Source: Aquificota bacterium (GTDB lineage: Bacteria > Thermosulfidibacterota > Thermosulfidibacteria > Thermosulfidibacterales > B14-G1). Taken from it: 34,461 bases of DNA. The number at the start of each line of letters is the position of its first letter. Positions within the stretch are counted from its first letter, which is position 1. Below the pieces are notes generated by a model, which saw only the letters and a list, made by a program, of their open reading frames with translations, searched no databases and was not told the DNA's origin. The DNA is taken from positions 1 through 34,461 of the forward strand of contig WFSL01000025.1 of the NCBI GenBank assembly GCA_015486015.1, read 5' to 3'. A program made the position numbers and the translations under genes. Below, piece after piece: positions 1 to 30,419 of the stretch.

Positions 1-2
1 AG

Positions 3-1156
3 TATGATGAGCTTAAACCAAGACTTGATAATTTAGATGCAGCCGAGCTTAATTTAAAAAAAGACAAGTAGAATGGGAGAGAAAAGTCCAGCTTGATGTC
101 GAAGCCATTAATACTTTAGCAAAAGAAAAATCTCAAGGGTTTCCTTGGCTGGCACAAACTTACGCTGATTACTTTTATCTCGAAGATCTAAAGAGGGCTA
201 GTTATCTTCAACACAAGTCTCACCCTGCCAAGAAAGCTGCTGAGCATGTCAGAGAAATAGCCACCAAACGAAGAATCGCTGAGAAGCTTTATAGGATTAT
301 GAGGTACCAATTAGAGTATTACGAGAATTTGTTTCCTTGGTTGATAGATTTCAAAGGTGAAGATATTGATAACCTCATTACACAAATACTAGAGAAAAGG
401 AAGAAGGGCAAAGATTATTTCGAGGAACCAGGTGACCCAGCGAAGAAATGGTTAACTGCAGCGGAATATGACAAACTTCCAAGAGTTGAGAAATACCAAC
501 TAGCTCTCGATCGCTATCGGAAAAAGAAGAAATCGCCGTGGGAACTTGGTAGGGATTATGAACGATACATCGGCTACTTGTATGAAAAAGATGGTTTTAG
601 GGTCTATTATCAAGGAATTATTGAAGGATTAAAGGACCTTGGAAGGGATCTAATTTGCGTTAAAGTCAATAAAATTGAAATTGTCCAATGTAAATATTGG
701 TCGCAAGATAAAACGATCCATGAGAAGCATATAAATCAATTATTTGGCACTACAGTGATGTATTGGGTTCAATCGCACAGAGTTAAAAATCTGCAAATGG
801 GGTTGTTTCCCCAGATTTTGAAACAAGGTGGTATTACACCATGTTTTATTACATCTACAAAACTTTCTGATACAGCAAAACAATTTTCAGAAGCGTTAGG
901 CATCAAGATTATAGAAAATTTCCCACTTCAGCCATACCCCCCTATTAAGTGTAATGTTTCTAGACGGACTGGTGAAAAAATTTATCATCTTCCTTTCGAT
1001 CAACAATATGAAAGAAATGAATGTTATGTTTGGACAGTGAAAGAAGCAGAAGCGCTTGGATTTCGCCGTGCGTTTCGATGGAAAGGTAAATCGCCAGAAT
1101 GGGTTGGAGATGCCTTCAAAAATATTCAGCCCGAAACAGCATCTATCACAGCATAG
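3..1156 (+). pseudogene. Mrr-like PD-(D/E)XK nuclease gene, partial, with apparent -1 frameshift
   Basis: This gene enters from the left edge. A first frame is open from position 3 and stops at TAG 69-71. A second frame is open from 53 to the stop at 1154-1156, with no good start codon before the ATG at 299. The two join naturally if one base is re-read, or one A is missing, at the A-run 56-62. The joined product has a charged, probably helical N-terminus. After the ATG at 299 comes a nuclease core at about residues 82-155 of the 285-residue downstream frame: a conserved Glu in YERYIGYLYEKDGF, then GRDL, then VQCKYW. That order fits the E...D...QxK pattern of Mrr-type restriction endonucleases. 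The C-terminus carries a GEKIYHLP...EAEALGFRRA motif, as in the small domain often attached to secreted or phage-like nucleases (sunset-type). Its base composition is A+T-rich, unlike the rest of the window, and no methylase is visible. It could be a pseudogene, a sequencing error in a homopolymer, or a gene using programmed frameshifting. The nuclease assignment is fairly secure; biological role and intactness are not. Confidence 0.6.
53..59 (+). other. T-TTA-AAA slippery heptamer at the frame junction
   Basis: The upstream frame reads TTA AAA at 54-59 preceded by T at 53, which is the X-XXY-YYZ pattern of -1 ribosomal frameshift sites. It continues into an A-run ending at 62. A one-base backward slip here moves ribosomes from the frame ending at 71 into the frame that runs to 1156. 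A homopolymer sequencing error or an ordinary indel would look identical. I did not identify a stimulatory stem-loop or an internal Shine-Dalgarno sequence. Confidence 0.4.
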
Positions 1157-1163
1157 AAGATTC

Positions 1164-1209
1164 GTCCGCCAGAGGCGGACTCGCTCAAATTTTTGCTTCG
1201 CAAAAATTT
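1164..1209. repeat. Tandem perfect hairpins after the nuclease gene
   Basis: The first hairpin pairs GTCCGCC (1164-1170) with GGCGGAC (1174-1180) across a 3-base loop. The second pairs AAATTTTTGC (1187-1196) with GCAAAAATTT (1200-1209) across TTC. They sit 8 bases past the stop codon of the nuclease gene. Neither is a textbook intrinsic terminator: the G+C-rich stem has no T-run after it, and the second stem is mostly A/T. A transcript-end structure or a small dispersed palindromic repeat are both possible. Confidence 0.6.
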
Positions 1210-1250
1210 CTTTTATGCTGAGAACGTCAGCCGCCGTTTTGTCTTTTTGA

Positions 1251-1442
1251 GGAGGAATTGCTGTAACGGATGAACTGAAGTCCCTAACGAAAGACTTTGA
1301 TGCGGCTTTTTTCAGATATGCACACCTCACTGGAGCGCTTGAATTATATATAATTGTCAAAAAATCAGTTATTATGAGCACTTTTAATATTCTACAATTC
1401 GAGAAATTTTATGTCTATAAAGTCTTAATGGGCTTCAAATAA
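1251..1442 (+). other. Possible short coding remnant, about 60 residues
   Basis: An open frame runs from just after a TGA at 1248-1250 to TAA at 1440-1442. It begins GGIAVTDELKSLTKDFDAAF and contains a plausible amphipathic helix. A strong GGAGG lies at 1251-1255, but no ATG, GTG or TTG follows it in this frame at useful distance; only an ATT at 1257 or an internal ATG at 1371 is available. It may be a decayed gene, a gene with a rare ATT start, or chance. I do not recognise the product. Confidence 0.2.
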
Positions 1443-1513
1443 TCTGTTAGAAATATGTTAGAAATTTTAATTTTGAGATTTGATTTATGGTTTGTAAGTT
1501 ATTGATTTTCTAG

Positions 1514-1587
<74 letters not shown>

Positions 1588-1598
1588 ATGGATATCTA

Positions 1599-1627
1599 TT
1601 CATAACCCCCTCCAAGGGGCAAGTCAA
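1599..1627 (-). promoter_or_regulatory. Probable promoter of tRNA-Arg
   Basis: On the minus strand a TTGACT -35 box (1622-1627) is followed after 17 bases by a TATGAA -10 box (1599-1604). This would start transcription a few bases before the tRNA 5' end at 1587. The boxes match the sigma-70 consensus 5 of 6 and 4 of 6. Confidence 0.55.
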
Positions 1628-1648
1628 CGGGGACTCAAAACCAGTACC

Positions 1649-1677
1649 TTGATTTCATCCTTCTCCCTCTGTATCTT
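1649..1677 (+). promoter_or_regulatory. Probable promoter of tRNA-Ser
   Basis: TTGATT (1649-1654) and TATCTT (1672-1677) are separated by 17 bases and end 15 bases before the tRNA. Each box matches the sigma-70 consensus at 4 of 6 positions. Spacing and location are good; box quality is moderate. Confidence 0.4.
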
Positions 1678-1692
1678 GATGACTACATTCGC

Positions 1693-1783
<91 letters not shown>

Positions 1784-2060
1784 AGAGATGCTCGAAAGAG
1801 CCCAACCTTATCCTCTCATGCAGCGTACAGCCACTTTCTGGCACACCCTGGTGCGTCAAGACCACTTGGCCAGGTTACAATTAAAGCGATACGCCTATTG
1901 AAGGATGAGGTTGCAAATGATCCCATTTGGTTTAGAAAGGGTAAGGAAAGCATGGAGAAGGGAGTTTGGGAAACAACTGTCCCAGAGGCCCGATCCTTTG
2001 GATGAGAGCCTGCATTGGGGATAGAGGTGTGATATCGAATGTGAAAGAAGGGGGTTGCAG

Positions 2061-3017
2061 ATGGGAGGATTTCAATATCTTTTTGGCCCTGTGCCTTCCA
2101 GGAGATTAGGCCTTTCCTTGGGCGTGGATCTGGTCCCATATAAGGTGTGCTCCTATGATTGTATATACTGCGAGGTGGGGGCTACCACCATCAAGACAGT
2201 AGAGCGCAAGGAATATGTGCCCCTGGATAAGGTCAAGGAAGAGTTGGAGGCATTCCTAACATCCAAAGGGGAAGCGGACTTTATCACCTTTTCAGGTTTT
2301 GGAGAACCGATGCTTCACAGCAGAATAGGCGAACTTATTGCATGGATTAAGAAGAGGAGCACTTTCCCAGTGGCTGTGCTCACAAATGGATCCTTGTTGA
2401 AAGATCCAAAGGCCAGGGACGATCTAATGATGGCCGATGTTGTGCTGCCATCATTAGATGCAGGAACCGAAAGGGTATTCAAGATCATCAATAGGCCACA
2501 TGTATCTATCTCCTTGGAAGGCTTAGTGGAAGGACTGGAGATATTTACAAAGGAGTTTCCTGGGGAGGTCTGGCTGGAAGTGCTCCTGGTGAAAGGGATC
2601 AACGATACCGCAGAGGAGCTAAAAGCCTTAGCAGAACTTATAAAGAGAATCTCTCCACATAGGGTCCAGCTCAACACTGTGGTGAGACCCCCTGCCCACG
2701 GGGGTAAGCCCTTAACCAAAGAAGAGATGGAAAGTATCCTCCCGCTGCTTGGCCCTAAAGCCGAGGTGGTAGTGTATCCCACGAAGAAGAAGGCCAAAAA
2801 AAGGGAAGGCCTCGAGGAGGCTATTGTAGGGACGGTAGCCCGAAGACCCTGCTCCAGAGAGGACATTGCAAAGGTACTGGGCCTCAATCCCATGGAGGTG
2901 ACCAAGTACCTGGGTCAGTTGTTAGAGGAGGGAAGATTAGAGCTGGTGAGGCACGGAGGGCAGATCTTTTACAAAAAAAGGCCTTTAACGAGGAATGGGC
3001 AGAAAAACAGCTCATAG
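2061..3017 (+). CDS. Radical SAM Fe-S protein, TYW1-like (COG0731 type), with C-terminal winged helix
   Basis: The protein is 318 residues and begins GGFQYLFGPVPSRRLG, a signature of COG0731 radical SAM proteins, which are distant relatives of the archaeal wyosine enzyme TYW1. The 4Fe-4S cluster motif is visible as CSYDCIYC (CX3CX2C) near residue 31. A glycine-rich SAM-binding segment, FSGFGEP, follows near residue 75. The last 60 residues (KREGLEEAI onward) look like a winged-helix domain. I chose ATG 2061 because a GGGGG ribosome-binding sequence ends 6 bases before it; a TTG at 2055 is also in frame. It overlaps tilS by 23 bases and heads the operon. Bacterial members lack a well-established reaction, so a tRNA-related role is only an inference, encouraged by the tilS neighbour. 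Confidence 0.85.
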   Translation: MGGFQYLFGPVPSRRLGLSLGVDLVPYKVCSYDCIYCEVGATTIKTVERKEYVPLDKVKEELEAFLTSKGEADFITFSGFGEPMLHSRIGELIAWIKKRSTFPVAVLTNGSLLKDPKARDDLMMADVVLPSLDAGTERVFKIINRPHVSISLEGLVEGLEIFTKEFPGEVWLEVLLVKGINDTAEELKALAELIKRISPHRVQLNTVVRPPAHGGKPLTKEEMESILPLLGPKAEVVVYPTKKKAKKREGLEEAIVGTVARRPCSREDIAKVLGLNPMEVTKYLGQLLEEGRLELVRHGGQIFYKKRPLTRNGQKNSS

Positions 3018-4380
3018 TGACTTCTTAAGGAAGGTCAGGGATACCATAGAGAAATACGGTCTCCTTGAAAAGGGAGATGGTGTATTAGTTGGTCTGTCAG
3101 GGGGCCAGGATTCAGTGGCCCTATGCCACGTCCTGCTACAACTGGCCCCCTCCCTGTCCCTACGGATAGAGGCAGCCCATTTTAACCATGGGATCCGCGG
3201 CGCCGAAGGTGACAGAGACCAAGCCTTTGTAGAAGAGCTCTGCAGAAATTGGGGGATCCATCTGGAAACAGGGAGGGGCGATGTCCCAGCCCTGGCTGCA
3301 AAGAGGGGCAGAGGCATTGAAGAGGCTGCCAGAGAGGCTCGATACGCCTTCCTCAAAGGGGTCTTGGTGAGCCGTGGGCTGCGTGGGCTTGCCCTGGCAC
3401 ATACCCTTTCAGACGCTGTTGAGACCTTCCTTATGCGCCTCATCAAAGGGGCAAGCCCATATGGTTTGAGAGGTATCCTACCCAAAAGAGGCGAAGTGAT
3501 CCGCCCCTTAGTAGAGGTCACCAGAGAAGAGGTCCAGATATATTGTGAGGCCCAAGGACTACCCTATGTGGAGGACTCGTCTAACTGCGATGTGAGCCAT
3601 TTCAGGAATTGGGTGCGCTGGCGCCTTCTGCCTCTACTTAAAGAAAGGAACCCAAAGGTAGAAGAGGCACTTGCTCGATTCATGGAGATCTTGAAGGAGG
3701 AAAACCAGGTCTTAGAAGAGGAGGCCCTCAGTATACTGAAGAACATGCCCCTCGAAGAAGATGGCATGCCAAAGGCCTCCCTGGGTCACCTGCCTCCAGG
3801 ACTCCGGAGACGGGTACTGTTGGATTTTATCCATGGGATGGGTGGCGATGCCTATTGGGGTCACCTCAAGGGCCTGGAGAGGCTCGTTGAGGGTCAAGGA
3901 GCAAAAGAGATACACCTGCCTGGGGGGCTGAAGGCCATTAGGGAAGGAGAACACATCAGATTTACCAGGTCCAATGCTGATGTACGCAGATGTGAGGCAG
4001 AAGAGGTATTGGTGTTCTGCCCCGGCCTATATGCGATAGGCGATTACCTCTTCAGCTTCGTCGAGCTGGGGGCAAGTGGAGGGGTAGTGGCCAGGACCCC
4101 ATGGTCCCTCCTCTTAGACCAAGATAAGGTGGAATTCCCTCTCATCATCAGGTATAAGAGGCCCGGGGATAAGATGTTTATTCAGAAGGTAGGACACAGG
4201 AAACTCCAAGACATCTTCGTGGATGCCAAGGTTCCTGGAAGGGAAAGGCAGAGAAGGCCCGTGCTGGCAGAGTGCAAAGGCAGGGTAATCTGGATACCAG
4301 GGTTGCGCTGGGATGCAAGGATAGTAGCTAATGGTGGAACCCGCCGGTTCCTCCTGGTAACGGTGAAGGGGGTCATATGA
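2995..4380 (+). CDS. tilS: tRNA(Ile)-lysidine synthetase
   Basis: TilS attaches lysine to C34 of the CAT-anticodon tRNA-Ile using ATP, so that the tRNA reads ATA. The 461-residue protein has the PP-loop ATP-pyrophosphatase motif SGGQDS at residues 35-40, the HFNHGIRG motif near 62-69, and a C-terminal TilS domain (about 375-460) with the conserved RPGDK segment. The length fits the full two-domain form. The ATG lies inside the end of the radical SAM gene, and the stop is one base before the hpt start, so translation is probably coupled. One departure from the family norm is AHTLSDAVET where HHxDDQAET is usual. Confidence 0.93.
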   Translation: MGRKTAHSDFLRKVRDTIEKYGLLEKGDGVLVGLSGGQDSVALCHVLLQLAPSLSLRIEAAHFNHGIRGAEGDRDQAFVEELCRNWGIHLETGRGDVPALAAKRGRGIEEAAREARYAFLKGVLVSRGLRGLALAHTLSDAVETFLMRLIKGASPYGLRGILPKRGEVIRPLVEVTREEVQIYCEAQGLPYVEDSSNCDVSHFRNWVRWRLLPLLKERNPKVEEALARFMEILKEENQVLEEEALSILKNMPLEEDGMPKASLGHLPPGLRRRVLLDFIHGMGGDAYWGHLKGLERLVEGQGAKEIHLPGGLKAIREGEHIRFTRSNADVRRCEAEEVLVFCPGLYAIGDYLFSFVELGASGGVVARTPWSLLLDQDKVEFPLIIRYKRPGDKMFIQKVGHRKLQDIFVDAKVPGRERQRRPVLAECKGRVIWIPGLRWDARIVANGGTRRFLLVTVKGVI

Positions 4381-4381
4381 A

Positions 4382-4894
4382 ATGGGAAAAATACTATATA
4401 CCGACCATCTGGTGAGGGAAAAGGTAAAGGAGCTGGCGCAGCAGATCACTGAGAGGTACAGGGGGGAAAGGCTCTTGGTGATCGGGGTATTGAAAGGGGC
4501 ATGGATCTTTATGGCAGATCTCGTGAGGTTTATGGATATGGAGCTCTTCTGCGATTTTGTGAGAGTAGCATCCTATGGAAAGGGGACAGAAAGTACAGGA
4601 GAGGTGTGTCTCCTCTACTGGCCTGACCTGGACTTCAGGGGAGAAAGGGTCCTGGTGGTGGACGATATCGCCGATACAGGGTTGACTTTAAAGTTCCTGA
4701 GGAAGAAATTCTTGAATGAAGGGGCAAAGAGTGTAGAGTTTTGCGTGCTGCTGGATAAACCTTCCAGAAGAAAAGTGGATTTCATTCCCGACTATGTGGG
4801 CTTCACCATTCCTGACCGGTTTGTAGTGGGATATGGGATGGACTTCAATGAACAATATAGGAATCTGCCCAATATTGAAATATACGAGGGATAG
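4382..4894 (+). CDS. hpt: Hypoxanthine phosphoribosyltransferase
   Basis: This 170-residue purine salvage enzyme converts hypoxanthine or guanine plus PRPP to IMP or GMP. The PRPP-binding motif is VLVVDDIADTGLTL near residues 90-103, and GVLKGAWIFMADL near 35-47 is the PPi-binding loop region. The C-terminal FTIPDRFVVGYGMDFNEQYR segment carries the base-binding loop. It sits between tilS and ftsH, the order common in many bacteria, with one base separating it from the tilS stop. The usual VEDIIDTGLT reads VDDIADTGLT, a conservative change. Confidence 0.93.
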   Translation: MGKILYTDHLVREKVKELAQQITERYRGERLLVIGVLKGAWIFMADLVRFMDMELFCDFVRVASYGKGTESTGEVCLLYWPDLDFRGERVLVVDDIADTGLTLKFLRKKFLNEGAKSVEFCVLLDKPSRRKVDFIPDYVGFTIPDRFVVGYGMDFNEQYRNLPNIEIYEG

Positions 4895-4903
4895 GAGGAT
4901 GCA

Positions 4904-6892
4904 TTGAGAAGATCGGCTCCCCCGAATATGCCGCCGCATATGCGAAACTTCACCAGAAACATCCTTATGTGGATTCTTGTAGCCATTGTGATGATAGTAG
5001 CCTTCAATCTCTTTAATGCTCCCCATCAGGTAGTAGAAGAGGTGAGTTATTCCCAGTTTCTTGATCTGCTGGAGAGAAATGCAATCAAGAGCACTGTAAT
5101 AGGGGAGCATGCCCTCACCGCAGAGGTAAATAGGAAGCTTTTCAGGGAGTATCGGAAGGAGATGGGTATTAAGAAAACCACCCTTCCGTTTTGGAGAAGG
5201 GCCTTAGGAGAAGAACAAGCAAGGAGAGGCCCACCTCCGGCTACAGTGAGGATAAAGGTGAATATCCCTTCTGACTATGGAGACCTTATCAAGAAGCTAA
5301 GAGAGCACCACGTGGGGATTTATGTGAAGCCCCCAGAGAAGACCCCCTGGTATGTAAGCATACTGGGATCCTGGCTGCCGTTCATCCTTCTTATAGCCAT
5401 CTGGATATTCTTCATGCGCCAGATGCAGGTGGGGGGCGGAAAGGCCCTCTCCTTTGGGAAGAGTAAGGCCAGGTTGATGTCGGATCAGGGTAAGAAGGTG
5501 ACATTTGCAGATGTGGCTGGCATCGAGGAGGCCAAGGAAGAGGTACAAGAGATCATTGAATTCCTTAAGGATCCCAAAAAGTTCCAGAAGTTAGGAGGCA
5601 AGATCCCCAAAGGTGTGCTTCTGGTGGGGCCCCCTGGGACAGGGAAGACTCTCCTCGCCAAGGCAATAGCAGGGGAGGCAGGGGTACCTTTCTTCTCTAT
5701 TAGCGGATCGGAGTTTGTGGAGATGTTTGTAGGCGTAGGTGCAGCCAGGGTAAGGGACCTCTTCGACCAGGCAAAGCGCCACGCACCGTGCATCATCTTT
5801 GTGGACGAGATCGACGCCGTGGGGCGCCATCGAGGCGCCGGCCTGGGCGGGGGACACGACGAGAGGGAGCAGACCCTTAATCAGCTCTTGGTAGAGATGG
5901 ACGGTATGGATACAAGTGAAGGCATCATCTTAGTAGCTGCCACCAACCGACCCGACATATTGGATCCTGCCCTCTTACGGCCAGGCCGCTTTGACAGACG
6001 CGTGGTGATCCCCAGACCCGATGTCAAGGGGAGAGAAGAGATCATTAAGGTCCATGTAAAGGGCAAACCCTTAAGCGAGGATGTAGATATCCAAGTGCTT
6101 GCCAAGTCCACGCCCGGTTTTTCCGGGGCTGACCTGGCCAACCTGGTGAATGAGGCCGCTCTCCTTGCGGCCAGGAGAGAGAAGGAACAAATCTCCATGG
6201 ATGACTTTGAGGAAGCGAAGGATAAAATACTCATGGGGGCAGAGAGAAAGAGCATGATTATAAGTGATGAAGAAAAGGAGAACACCGCTTACCATGAGGG
6301 GGGTCATGCACTGGTGGCCAAGCTCATCCCAGGCACAGACCCAGTGCACAAGGTGACCATCATACCCAGAGGATTGGCCTTAGGGGTTACCCAACAGCTT
6401 CCCACAGATGACAGATACACTTACACCAGAGAGCAATTACTGAAGAATATCACCGTACTCTTAGGGGGAAGGGCAGCAGAGGAGGTGGTACTCCACCATC
6501 AGACCACAGGGGCAGCTAACGACTTAGAGAGGGCTACAGAAATTGCCAGAAGGATGGTGTGCCAGTTTGGTATGAGCGAAAGATTGGGGCCCCTTACCTT
6601 TGGGAAGAAGGATGAGATGATCTTCTTAGGGAAAGAACTTGCTACACACAAAGAGTACAGTGAGAGAACGGCTGAAGAGATAGACGAAGAGGTGAGCAGG
6701 ATCGTTAGGGAATGTTACGAAGAGGCAAAGGGACTGCTCACAGCCAATATCGAAGCCTTAAAGGCGCTGGCGAGGGCACTCTTAGAAAAAGAGGTGCTCT
6801 CCTCAAATGAGATAGACGATATCCTATCCCAGTATGAACTGAAGAGGAGCACCCGTTTTGAGGAAGCAAAGGCAAGTGCTGAGGCTGGGTAA
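4904..6892 (+). CDS. ftsH: ATP-dependent zinc metalloprotease FtsH
   Basis: This membrane-bound AAA+ protease degrades misfolded and regulatory proteins. The 662 residues show a first membrane helix (about 19-38), a periplasmic domain, a second helix (about 152-171), Walker A GPPGTGKT (242-249), Walker B ending FVDEID, the second region of homology [20 protein letters not shown], and the zinc site HEGGH near 464. The start is TTG 4904, preceded by AGGAGG at 4893-4898, with a downstream ATG possible. The periplasmic part is about 112 residues against about 70 in E. coli, because of an extra basic segment at roughly residues 73-112. Its last 35 bases overlap folP. Confidence 0.96.
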
Positions 6893-7688
6893 ACGGGCCC
6901 TAATCATGGGAATCCTGAACGTGACCCCTGACTCGTTTTCTGATGGAGGGAAGTACGTGGACCTGGATGCAGCCCTGAAACATGCAAGAGAGATGGCAGA
7001 GGAGGGGGCAGACATCATCGATGTAGGGGGTGAATCTACCAGGCCAGGTGCCAACCCTGTGCCATTGGAAGAAGAGATGGAGCGGGTGCTCCCTGTGATA
7101 GAGGCCATTGCAAGAGAGGTGGACGTGCCAATCTCGGTAGACACGTACAAGGCCCCTGTCGCAGAGGCAGCCTTAGAAGCAGGGGCTGTCATGGTGAACG
7201 ATGTCTCGGGTTTGCGCTTCTCCCCTGAGATGGCAGATGTGGTGGCACGGCACAGGGCCTGGGTGGTGGTGATGCATATGCAGGGAACACCAAGGGATAT
7301 GCAAGAGGCACCTTATTACAAGGACGTAGTAGAAGAGATCCATGAATTCTTTCAGGAGCGTATAAGGTTCGCAGAGAAGCACGGTGTGCCAAGGGAGAAA
7401 ATTATCCTGGATCCGGGCATTGGGTTTGGAAAGAGGTTGAAGGACAATCTTGCCTTATTTCAAGGCATCCCACGGTTTCTCTCCTTGGGTTGCCCCATCA
7501 TGGTGGGGCCAAGCCGTAAATCTTTCATAGGCAACATATTAGGTCTGCCTATACAGGAGAGGCTTGAGGGTACCCTGGCAGCCGTGGCTATCGCCGTGTT
7601 TCAGGGAGCACAGGTCATCAGGGTTCACGACGTCAGGCCAGCCAAAAGGGCAGCTGACCTGGCATGGGCTATGAGGAGGAAGATATGA
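6858..7688 (+). CDS. folP: Dihydropteroate synthase
   Basis: FolP joins p-aminobenzoate to the pterin diphosphate in folate synthesis. The 276-residue TIM-barrel protein has the pterin-site motifs [15 protein letters not shown] (about 17-31) and GGESTRPGA (about 57-65), plus [13 protein letters not shown] and GPSRKSFIG further on, all intact. The start taken is TTG 6858, inside the end of ftsH; a GTG at 6876 is also in frame and would leave enough N-terminus. The stop overlaps the cdaA start as ATGA. Confidence 0.95.
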
Positions 7689-8500
7689 AAGAGATCATAC
7701 CCTATCTAACCAGATCATTCTTATCCATGCGATGGCAGGATGTATTAGACATTCTTGTGGTAGCCTTTATTATTTATCACTTCTTACTTATGCTGAAAGG
7801 GACAAGGGCATTCCGAATGCTAGTAGGTGTGGGGGTCATAGTCTTCATTACCATCCTTTCTCAGTTGTTGAAGCTCCAGGCCCTCAACTGGCTTTTTTCC
7901 AACTTCTGGCAGATGGGAGTCCTCATTCTGGTGATACTCTTCCAGCCCGAATTGAGGAGGGCCCTTGCCCAGATGGGAACCACGCCCTTTTACTTAGGTG
8001 GCACGCTTAAAGAAGAATTGGTGCTAAAGGAGATTGTGGAGGCTGCACACACACTGGCCACCAGGAAGATCGGTGCCCTAATAGTGCTGGAAAGAGAGAT
8101 GGGCCTAAAAAACTACATTGACTCAGGCATAATCATGAGGGCTGAGGTGAGCAAGGAGCTCCTCATCTCCATCTTCCTTCCCTACTCTCCGCTCCATGAC
8201 GGGGCCACCATCGTTAGATACGATAAGATTATGGCAGCTGCTTGCCTCCTCCCTCTGTCCACGGATCCGCGTATCAGCAAGGTCCTTGGAACCAGACATA
8301 GAGCAGCCCTTGGACTCTCCGAGGAAACGGACGCTGTAGTGATTGTGGTCTCGGAAGAGAGCGGGATTATCTCAGTAGCTATAGGAGGTAAGCTTACCAG
8401 GCAATTGGACAAAGAGAGCCTTTACAGGGTGTTGAGTAACCTCTTCCTCAGAGGGGGCAAAAAGGGGAGGCCCGTGTGGGCATTGATGACGCAGGAGTGA
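7685..8500 (+). CDS. cdaA: Membrane diadenylate cyclase CdaA
   Basis: CdaA makes cyclic di-AMP from two ATP. The 271-residue protein has three N-terminal membrane helices (about 18-38, 43-63, 66-86) and a DAC domain with the two signature motifs, DGA at 172-174 and RHR at 204-206. The ATG at 7685 overlaps the folP stop as ATGA and has AGGAGG at 7674-7679; a longer version starting at 7664 is less likely. In many bacteria cdaA is followed by the regulator gene cdaR (ybbR) and glmM. Here the next gene is nadK, and neither partner is visible. No c-di-AMP phosphodiesterase is in the window. Confidence 0.94.
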   Translation: MKEIIPYLTRSFLSMRWQDVLDILVVAFIIYHFLLMLKGTRAFRMLVGVGVIVFITILSQLLKLQALNWLFSNFWQMGVLILVILFQPELRRALAQMGTTPFYLGGTLKEELVLKEIVEAAHTLATRKIGALIVLEREMGLKNYIDSGIIMRAEVSKELLISIFLPYSPLHDGATIVRYDKIMAAACLLPLSTDPRISKVLGTRHRAALGLSEETDAVVIVVSEESGIISVAIGGKLTRQLDKESLYRVLSNLFLRGGKKGRPVWALMTQE

Positions 8501-29978: not shown

Positions 29979-30419
29979 ATGGAAAACGATGCCTCAAGAG
30001 TTGCAGCCGAGAGGGTGAAGAGGTACATCAGCAGCAAGGACAGGTTGATAGATCTGTTGGGAGCCAAGGTGTTAGAGGTCTCCCCTGGATACGCAAAGGT
30101 GGCCCTCACTGTAGAGGATAAGCACTTGAATGCAGCCAATGTTTGCCATGGTGGGGTCCTCTTCTCTTTAAGCGATCTGGCCTTTGCCCTGGCGAGCAAT
30201 AGCCACGGAAGCCTGGCACTGGCACTGGAGGTAAGCATGAGCTTTTTAAGAGCCGTTTCGATGGGTGAGCAGATCGTGGCAGAGGCAAAGGAAGCGCACT
30301 TAGGTAAAAAAACAGCTACATACATCATGACCGTGACCAATGCCAGAGGAGAGAAGATTGCCCTCACCAAAGGGACGGTTTACCGCTTTGATAGGCCTTT
30401 TCCACCAGAAGGGGAATAG
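29979..30419 (+). CDS. PaaI-family hotdog thioesterase
   Basis: The 146-residue single hotdog domain has the family motif [20 protein letters not shown] (about 51-70), including the conserved His-Gly-Gly and the Asp expected for catalysis. Members hydrolyse aryl-CoA or acyl-CoA thioesters, the best known being hydroxyphenylacetyl-CoA thioesterase. It follows tetR closely with a GGAG site upstream, so the two are probably cotranscribed. No phenylacetate pathway genes are present, so the substrate is unknown. Confidence 0.85.

What the first reader, a model, noticed from the sequence alone, without database searches (positions are those of the whole stretch)
3..71. Nuclease frame broken at a T-TTA-AAA slippery heptamer
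The upstream frame (open from 3, TAG at 69-71) and the frame carrying the nuclease (open from 53) meet at a canonical -1 slippery heptamer running into seven A's. A -1 slip gives one continuous coiled-coil plus nuclease protein. Programmed frameshifting in a restriction or defence nuclease would be unusual. A one-base deletion or homopolymer sequencing error is equally consistent.
Basis: partly seen in the sequence, partly recalled or inferred. Interest (0 to 1): 0.5.

Follow-up and report, generated by a model that had tools for sequence, protein, structure and literature searches.

The report
Broken nuclease frame at contig end
A bacterial DNA-cutting enzyme gene appears split by a one-base slip in a run of A's right at the ragged end of an assembled piece of DNA, which is most likely a sequencing or copying error and not a deliberate trick of gene expression.

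Summary
In detail: frame 3 is open to TAG 69-71, the nuclease frame is open from 53, and they meet at T-TTA-AAA (53-59) running into A7, with a second in-phase heptamer, A-AAA-AAA (56-62). The window is one whole contig, so the break lies about 55 bases from a contig end. And 12 of 12 full homologues found (47-62% identical) have one uninterrupted frame through the equivalent distance. The heptamer is weak evidence: in simulated genes of this codon usage 80% of A7 runs hold one in phase, and 8 of 12 unbroken homologues have one in their N-terminal part. No significant downstream structure or Shine-Dalgarno-like stimulator was found. The nuclease half keeps 64 of 66 columns invariant in nine relatives, so the break, if real, is recent. 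Best reading: an ordinary one-base frame break in an A-run (sequencing or assembly error, or recent indel) in a coiled-coil, Mrr-type restriction nuclease gene cut off by the contig edge. Programming is unsupported, but not excluded without reads or a close relative. Side result: the nuclease's relatives are often linked to predicted membrane segments and zinc-ribbon partners.

The parts
3..71 (+). 3' end of the upstream reading frame (22 codons then TAG); presumed continuation of the nuclease's N-terminal coil, cut off by the contig edge
   Evidence: the only frame without a stop from 3 to 68
53..59 (+). T-TTA-AAA, in phase with the upstream frame
56..62 (+). A7 run; also an in-phase A-AAA-AAA heptamer overlapping the first; the likely place of the one-base length difference
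53..1156 (+). nuclease frame (367 codons, no ATG/GTG/TTG before 299), Mrr_cat restriction endonuclease
548..763 (+). Mrr_cat (PF04471) match, residues 166-237, with the conserved D...QCK residues
   Evidence: E 6.6e-8, 33.1 bits, cut-off 21; alignment; the catalytic role of the motif is recalled
944..1072 (+). sunset-like C-terminal domain, residues 298-340, below the curated cut-off; six or seven residues shorter than in the 12 homologues

Best explanation
This is an ordinary, non-programmed frame break. The gene codes for a coiled-coil, Mrr-type restriction endonuclease, cut off at its 5' side by the end of the contig. About 55 bases inside that end, in a run of A's in the Lys-rich coil, the assembled sequence differs by one base in run length from what one continuous frame needs, through either a sequencing/assembly error at the contig end or a recent indel. 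The slippery heptamers come with an A-run in a Lys codon context and need no function. Shown: the break, the contig end, the unbroken homologues, the conserved nuclease half. Inferred: that the upstream frame is this gene's N-terminus, and whether it is an error (about 60%) or a real indel (about 30%).
For: The window is the whole contig C25, 34,461 bases, starting at base 1. 12 of 12 full homologues have a single frame, bounded by stops inside the fetched DNA, with 56-139 residues from first Met to the FPWL motif; the window's nuclease frame has 29 residues and no ATG/GTG/TTG before FPWL, so an upstream part is needed, and in relatives it is continuous. In simulated genes of this codon usage 80% of A7-or-longer runs hold an in-phase heptamer. 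8 of 12 unbroken homologues (5 of 9 counting the four near-identical Hymenobacter copies once) have one before FPWL. The nuclease frame keeps 64 of 66 columns invariant in nine other members (L021-L023 left out as near-copies of L020), the same proportion as four of the nine and above the other five. Downstream RNA folds within the shuffled range: z 0.04 for 60-140, 97 of 200 shuffles as good; z -1.17 for 65-115, 23 of 200. No GGAG/AGGA/GAGG/AAGG in the 27 bases before the heptamer. In PMC3711429 (passages) programmed-frameshift clusters need a conserved site and five or more genes, and singletons validated by BLASTp are expected to be sequencing errors.
Against: No reads were available, so the A count is untested. 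The closest homologue found is about 62% identical, so a break confined to the window's own species cannot be excluded. For 7 of 12 homologues the sequence match itself starts only at residue 10 or later of the window's nuclease frame, after the site, so there the site is placed by distance from FPWL, not by alignment. The heptamers include A-AAA-AAA, which is common in bacterial IS elements (PMC4066793, passages), and one homologue has A-AAA-AAG at nearly the same place. The other three A7 runs in the window lie inside listed ORFs (2055-3017 twice, 29979-30419 once), so not every A-run here gives a break; I did not check those ORFs against homologues.
Confidence: 0.9

Rival explanations
1. 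Programmed -1 ribosomal frameshifting: ribosomes slip on T-TTA-AAA / A-AAA-AAA and make a full-length nuclease at a set ratio to a short coil peptide.
For: Heptamers in the right phase and direction, with the 0-frame stop starting 10 and 7 bases after their last bases. A-AAA-AAA is common among IS-element motifs and on the list of 18 selected motifs in PMC4066793 (passages). L005 has A-AAA-AAG at nearly the same distance from FPWL.
Against: 12 of 12 homologues unbroken. T-TTA-AAA is neither among the motifs that paper calls most efficient in E. coli (U_UU.A_AA.G is) nor on its list of 18 selected motifs. No significant downstream structure and no SD-like element. Contig-end position.
Confidence: 0.03
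2. Real one-base indel in the A-run, partly rescued by low-level ribosomal or transcriptional slippage on A7 (adventitious correction, not programming). This is a sub-case of the real-indel branch of the best explanation, so its weight overlaps with it.
For: A7 with an in-phase A-AAA-AAA; the nuclease half is still conserved. Corrective frameshifting as a class is described in PMC5009743, which says most known cases are mitochondrial (passages).
Against: The review's passage on bacterial transcription slippage speaks of runs of 9 A's or T's, and this run has 7. Nothing here shows that the indel is real.
Confidence: 0.05
3. The first ~50 bases are a chimeric contig tip and are not the N-terminus of this gene at all.
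For: Contig tip. The upstream 22 residues have no Pfam match and are too few to show homology; an open frame of that length has an 18% chance.
Against: In the assembly the first 75 bases match only themselves and one 14-base stretch of C38 (E 1.3). The frame meets the nuclease frame within the A-run, where a one-base length difference suffices, and its charged, Leu/Lys-rich composition is coil-like (read by eye).
Confidence: 0.05

Closest known systems
Mrr_cat (PF04471) restriction endonucleases
   Same: Curated-threshold match with the conserved nuclease residues
   Different: Long variable N-terminal coil and a sunset-like C-terminal domain below the curated cut-off; substrate untested
Bacterial -1 programmed frameshift genes (IS transposases, dnaX; named in PMC4066793 and PMC3711429, passages)
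   Same: In-phase X-XXY-YYZ heptamers before a 0-frame stop
   Different: Break not kept in homologues, no stimulators found, and the gene is neither a transposase nor dnaX
Singleton frame breaks, pseudogenes and sequencing errors of the GeneTack survey (PMC3711429, passages)
   Same: A single frameshift not seen in relatives, in a homopolymer, in a gene whose relatives are intact
   Different: No difference noticed; the survey used complete genomes, whereas this is a draft contig end
CoCoNuTs, coiled-coil nuclease tandems (PMC11090510; start of abstract in a search listing only)
   Same: Coiled coil plus nuclease
   Different: That family is a branch of McrBC; no GTPase or tandem was searched for here, so membership was not tested

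Membership tests
Programmed -1 frameshift genes | Slippery heptamer in phase, upstream of the 0-frame stop | tested here: met
   53-59 and 56-62, stop 69-71
Programmed -1 frameshift genes | Break and site conserved among homologues | tested here: not met
   12 of 12 homologues unbroken; none has T-TTA-AAA in phase before FPWL; one (L005) has A-AAA-AAG nearby in an unbroken frame
Programmed -1 frameshift genes | Stimulatory downstream structure or upstream SD-like element | tested here: not met
   z 0.04 and -1.17; no SD-like tetramer in 27 bases. No pseudoknot search was made
Programmed -1 frameshift genes | Both products made in cells | not testable with these tools
   needs proteomics or a reporter
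Mrr_cat restriction endonuclease | PF04471 match above the gathering score | tested here: met
   33.1 bits against 21
Mrr_cat restriction endonuclease | Conserved nuclease residues (D...QxK) | tested here: met
   GRDLI...IVQCK aligned with 12 homologues; their catalytic role is recalled
Mrr_cat restriction endonuclease | Cleaves DNA | not testable with these tools
   no assay
sunset domain (NF051437) | Score above the curated cut-off of 27 bits | tested here: not met
   23 bits; the seven homologues in the same call are below it too, six at 17.8-24 bits and one without a hit

The most novel reading that the evidence does not exclude
A species-specific, leaky -1 slip on two overlapping heptamers sets a low level of a full-length, possibly membrane-linked restriction nuclease while most translation ends in the coil: dosage control of a self-damaging enzyme by recoding.
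Probability: 0.03. Interest if true: 0.55.

Novelty: not a real feature. Interest (0 to 1): 0.1.

Why it matters
As it stands it matters mainly as a caution: a slippery heptamer at a frame break in an A-run is expected by default, and a break at a contig tip should not be read as recoding. If programming were real it would be an unusual way of dosing a restriction nuclease; two narrow paper searches (10 of 12 and 2 of 2 papers listed) showed no such case by title, and none of those 12 listed papers was read.

Tried and rejected
Internal start for the nuclease: rejected. The first ATG/GTG/TTG in its frame is at 299, beyond the FPWL motif; of seven start-like codons looked for before FPWL the only one present is an ATT at 107. 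Homologues have 56-139 residues from first Met to FPWL.

Gene decay shown by the gap in FDQQY-ERNECY: first taken as a sign of decay, then dropped. The sunset profile scores the window's shorter form (23 bits) above six of the seven homologues scanned, and the invariant-column test shows no decay.

Overlapping contig carrying the 5' part: none found. Phages and viral contigs (two pattern matches, none confirmed): no relative. PDB by sequence: two matches at E 0.14 and 0.25, both nanobody-like. PADLOC: one type IIG match at E 0.026. A paper search for the sunset domain with Mrr/restriction: none of the six papers listed holds the term.

Rows dropped before the homologue count: weak partial matches L017, L018 and L024-L027, which cover only part of the protein and do not reach the site (L017 has one TAG inside its 241-348 match); and L012-L016, the same contigs and genes as L004-L008.

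A disagreement: the genome search gives open frames of 454 and 681 residues for L003 and L019, while my stop-to-stop reading gives 441 and 417. I did not resolve why; both readings have no stop inside the match.

Full report
What is there. Bases 53-62 read TTTAAAAAAA. The frame starting at base 3 is open to TAG 69-71. The nuclease frame is open 53-1156 and is blocked upstream by six stops. T-TTA-AAA at 53-59 is in phase with the upstream frame, and so is A-AAA-AAA at 56-62. The direction is -1.

Where it is. The window is the whole of contig C25 of a 43-contig, 1.62 Mb draft genome, starting at base 1. The upstream frame is open at its left side only because the contig begins there. In the assembly the first 75 bases match only themselves and one 14-base stretch.

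What the gene is. The protein matches Mrr_cat (PF04471, 33.1 bits, cut-off 21) and weakly a sunset domain (23 bits, cut-off 27). It has one copy in its own genome. In the 'relatives' search 2 of 60 genomes match, the window's own and G049, listed as same domain; the eight closest (G001-G008) do not. Further full relatives: five loci of genome contigs, four Hymenobacter plasmids, G469 among 132 genomes and G1009 among 124. Besides members already known, samples of 400 and 395 genomes from the phyla of two of these gave only weak partial matches, and the other three genomes held of G049's phylum gave none. Phage records and viral contigs gave none.

Test by homologues. In 12 of 12 full homologues, 47-62% identical by tblastn, one frame runs from before the site's distance to the stop; all 12 frames are bounded by stop codons within the fetched DNA. 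From first Met to the FPWL motif they have 56-139 residues; the window's nuclease frame has 29 and no ATG/GTG/TTG there. So an upstream part is needed, very probably the upstream frame, and relatives read it without a slip. A caution: the sequence match itself reaches within four residues of the frame's start in 5 of 12 (L005, L006, L007, L008, L028); in the other seven the site is placed by distance. None of the 12 has T-TTA-AAA in phase before FPWL. L005 has A-AAA-AAG 29 residues before FPWL, against 28 in the window, in an unbroken frame. 8 of 12 hold some in-phase X-XXY-YYZ heptamer before FPWL (5 of 9 with the four Hymenobacter copies counted once).

Test by chance. In simulated coding sequences with this gene's codons, 80% of A7-or-longer runs contain an in-phase heptamer, against 3.3% for a random overlap of about 19 bases. 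Once the break is in an A-run, the heptamer is expected. The exact in-phase TTT-A7 string is rarer, 1% of such runs, and TTTAAAAAAA occurs twice in the assembly. But T-TTA-AAA is not among the motifs that PMC4066793 calls most efficient in E. coli, nor on its list of 18 selected motifs, while A-AAA-AAA is on that list (passages).

Test for stimulators. Folding of 60-140 and 65-115 is within the shuffled range (z 0.04 and -1.17). No SD-like tetramer lies in the 27 bases before the heptamer. Pseudoknots were not searched for.

State of the gene. The window's nuclease part keeps 64 of 66 columns that are invariant in nine other members, as good as or better than each of them. It is functional or only recently broken, as expected for a sequencing error or a fresh indel, and equally for a working recoded gene. 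A gap of six or seven residues in the C-terminal domain relative to the 12 homologues is not taken as decay, because the sunset profile accommodates it.

Base rate. In the GeneTack survey 146 clusters were assigned to recoding against 4010 pseudogene clusters. More than half of the predicted frameshift genes were singletons, and the singletons validated by BLASTp (about 30% of them) were expected to be sequencing errors (PMC3711429, abstract and passages). By what was tested here this case is a singleton.

Conclusion. One-base error or recent indel in an A-run at a contig tip: 0.9. Programmed frameshifting: 0.03. Chimeric tip: 0.05. Adventitious rescue (0.05) overlaps with the real-indel branch.

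Side result. The nuclease family tends to be linked to a predicted membrane segment. In 6 of 12 loci (L003, L005, L006, L007, L019, L028) a 110-139 residue gene with a strongly hydrophobic stretch near its N-terminus lies 1-18 bases upstream on the same strand. In four of these six (L003, L005, L007, L019) it carries a Top1-type C4 zinc ribbon (PF01396) in its C-terminal part, and those four are similar to one another. In 5 of 12 (L004 and the four Hymenobacter copies) the nuclease frame itself has a hydrophobic N-terminal stretch. In L008 the nuclease has none and the upstream gene lies on the other strand, untested. This is hydropathy only; no topology prediction was run. One paper search listed four papers, none with a title describing this arrangement; I did not read them.

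Noticed in passing
L003, L005, L006, L007, L019, L028, L004, L020-L023: Relatives of the nuclease are linked to predicted membrane segments: a tightly adjacent upstream small gene with a hydrophobic N-terminus (6 of 12 loci, 4 of them with a Top1-type C4 zinc ribbon) or a hydrophobic N-terminus on the nuclease itself (5 of 12). Possibly a membrane-tethered restriction unit.
   Followed up: partly
window 1-1512: Low-GC stretch (36-40% GC in 1-1500; nuclease GC3 0.32) beside 46-56% GC from 1501 to 8000 (GC3 0.57-0.62 in six window genes). It lies at the 3' side of tRNA-Arg(CCT) 1513-1587 (-); in stretches of 2.5-4 kb read around the same tRNA in four relatives no nuclease was found. Suggests an acquired island at a tRNA gene.
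   Followed up: partly
window 995-1027: Six or seven residues present in the FDQQYDxTxI... block of the 12 homologues are absent, in frame, in the window's copy.
   Followed up: partly
window 1164-1209: Two perfect palindromes after the nuclease stop (1164-1180 and 1187-1209), terminator- or repeat-like; read by eye, letters checked.
   Followed up: no
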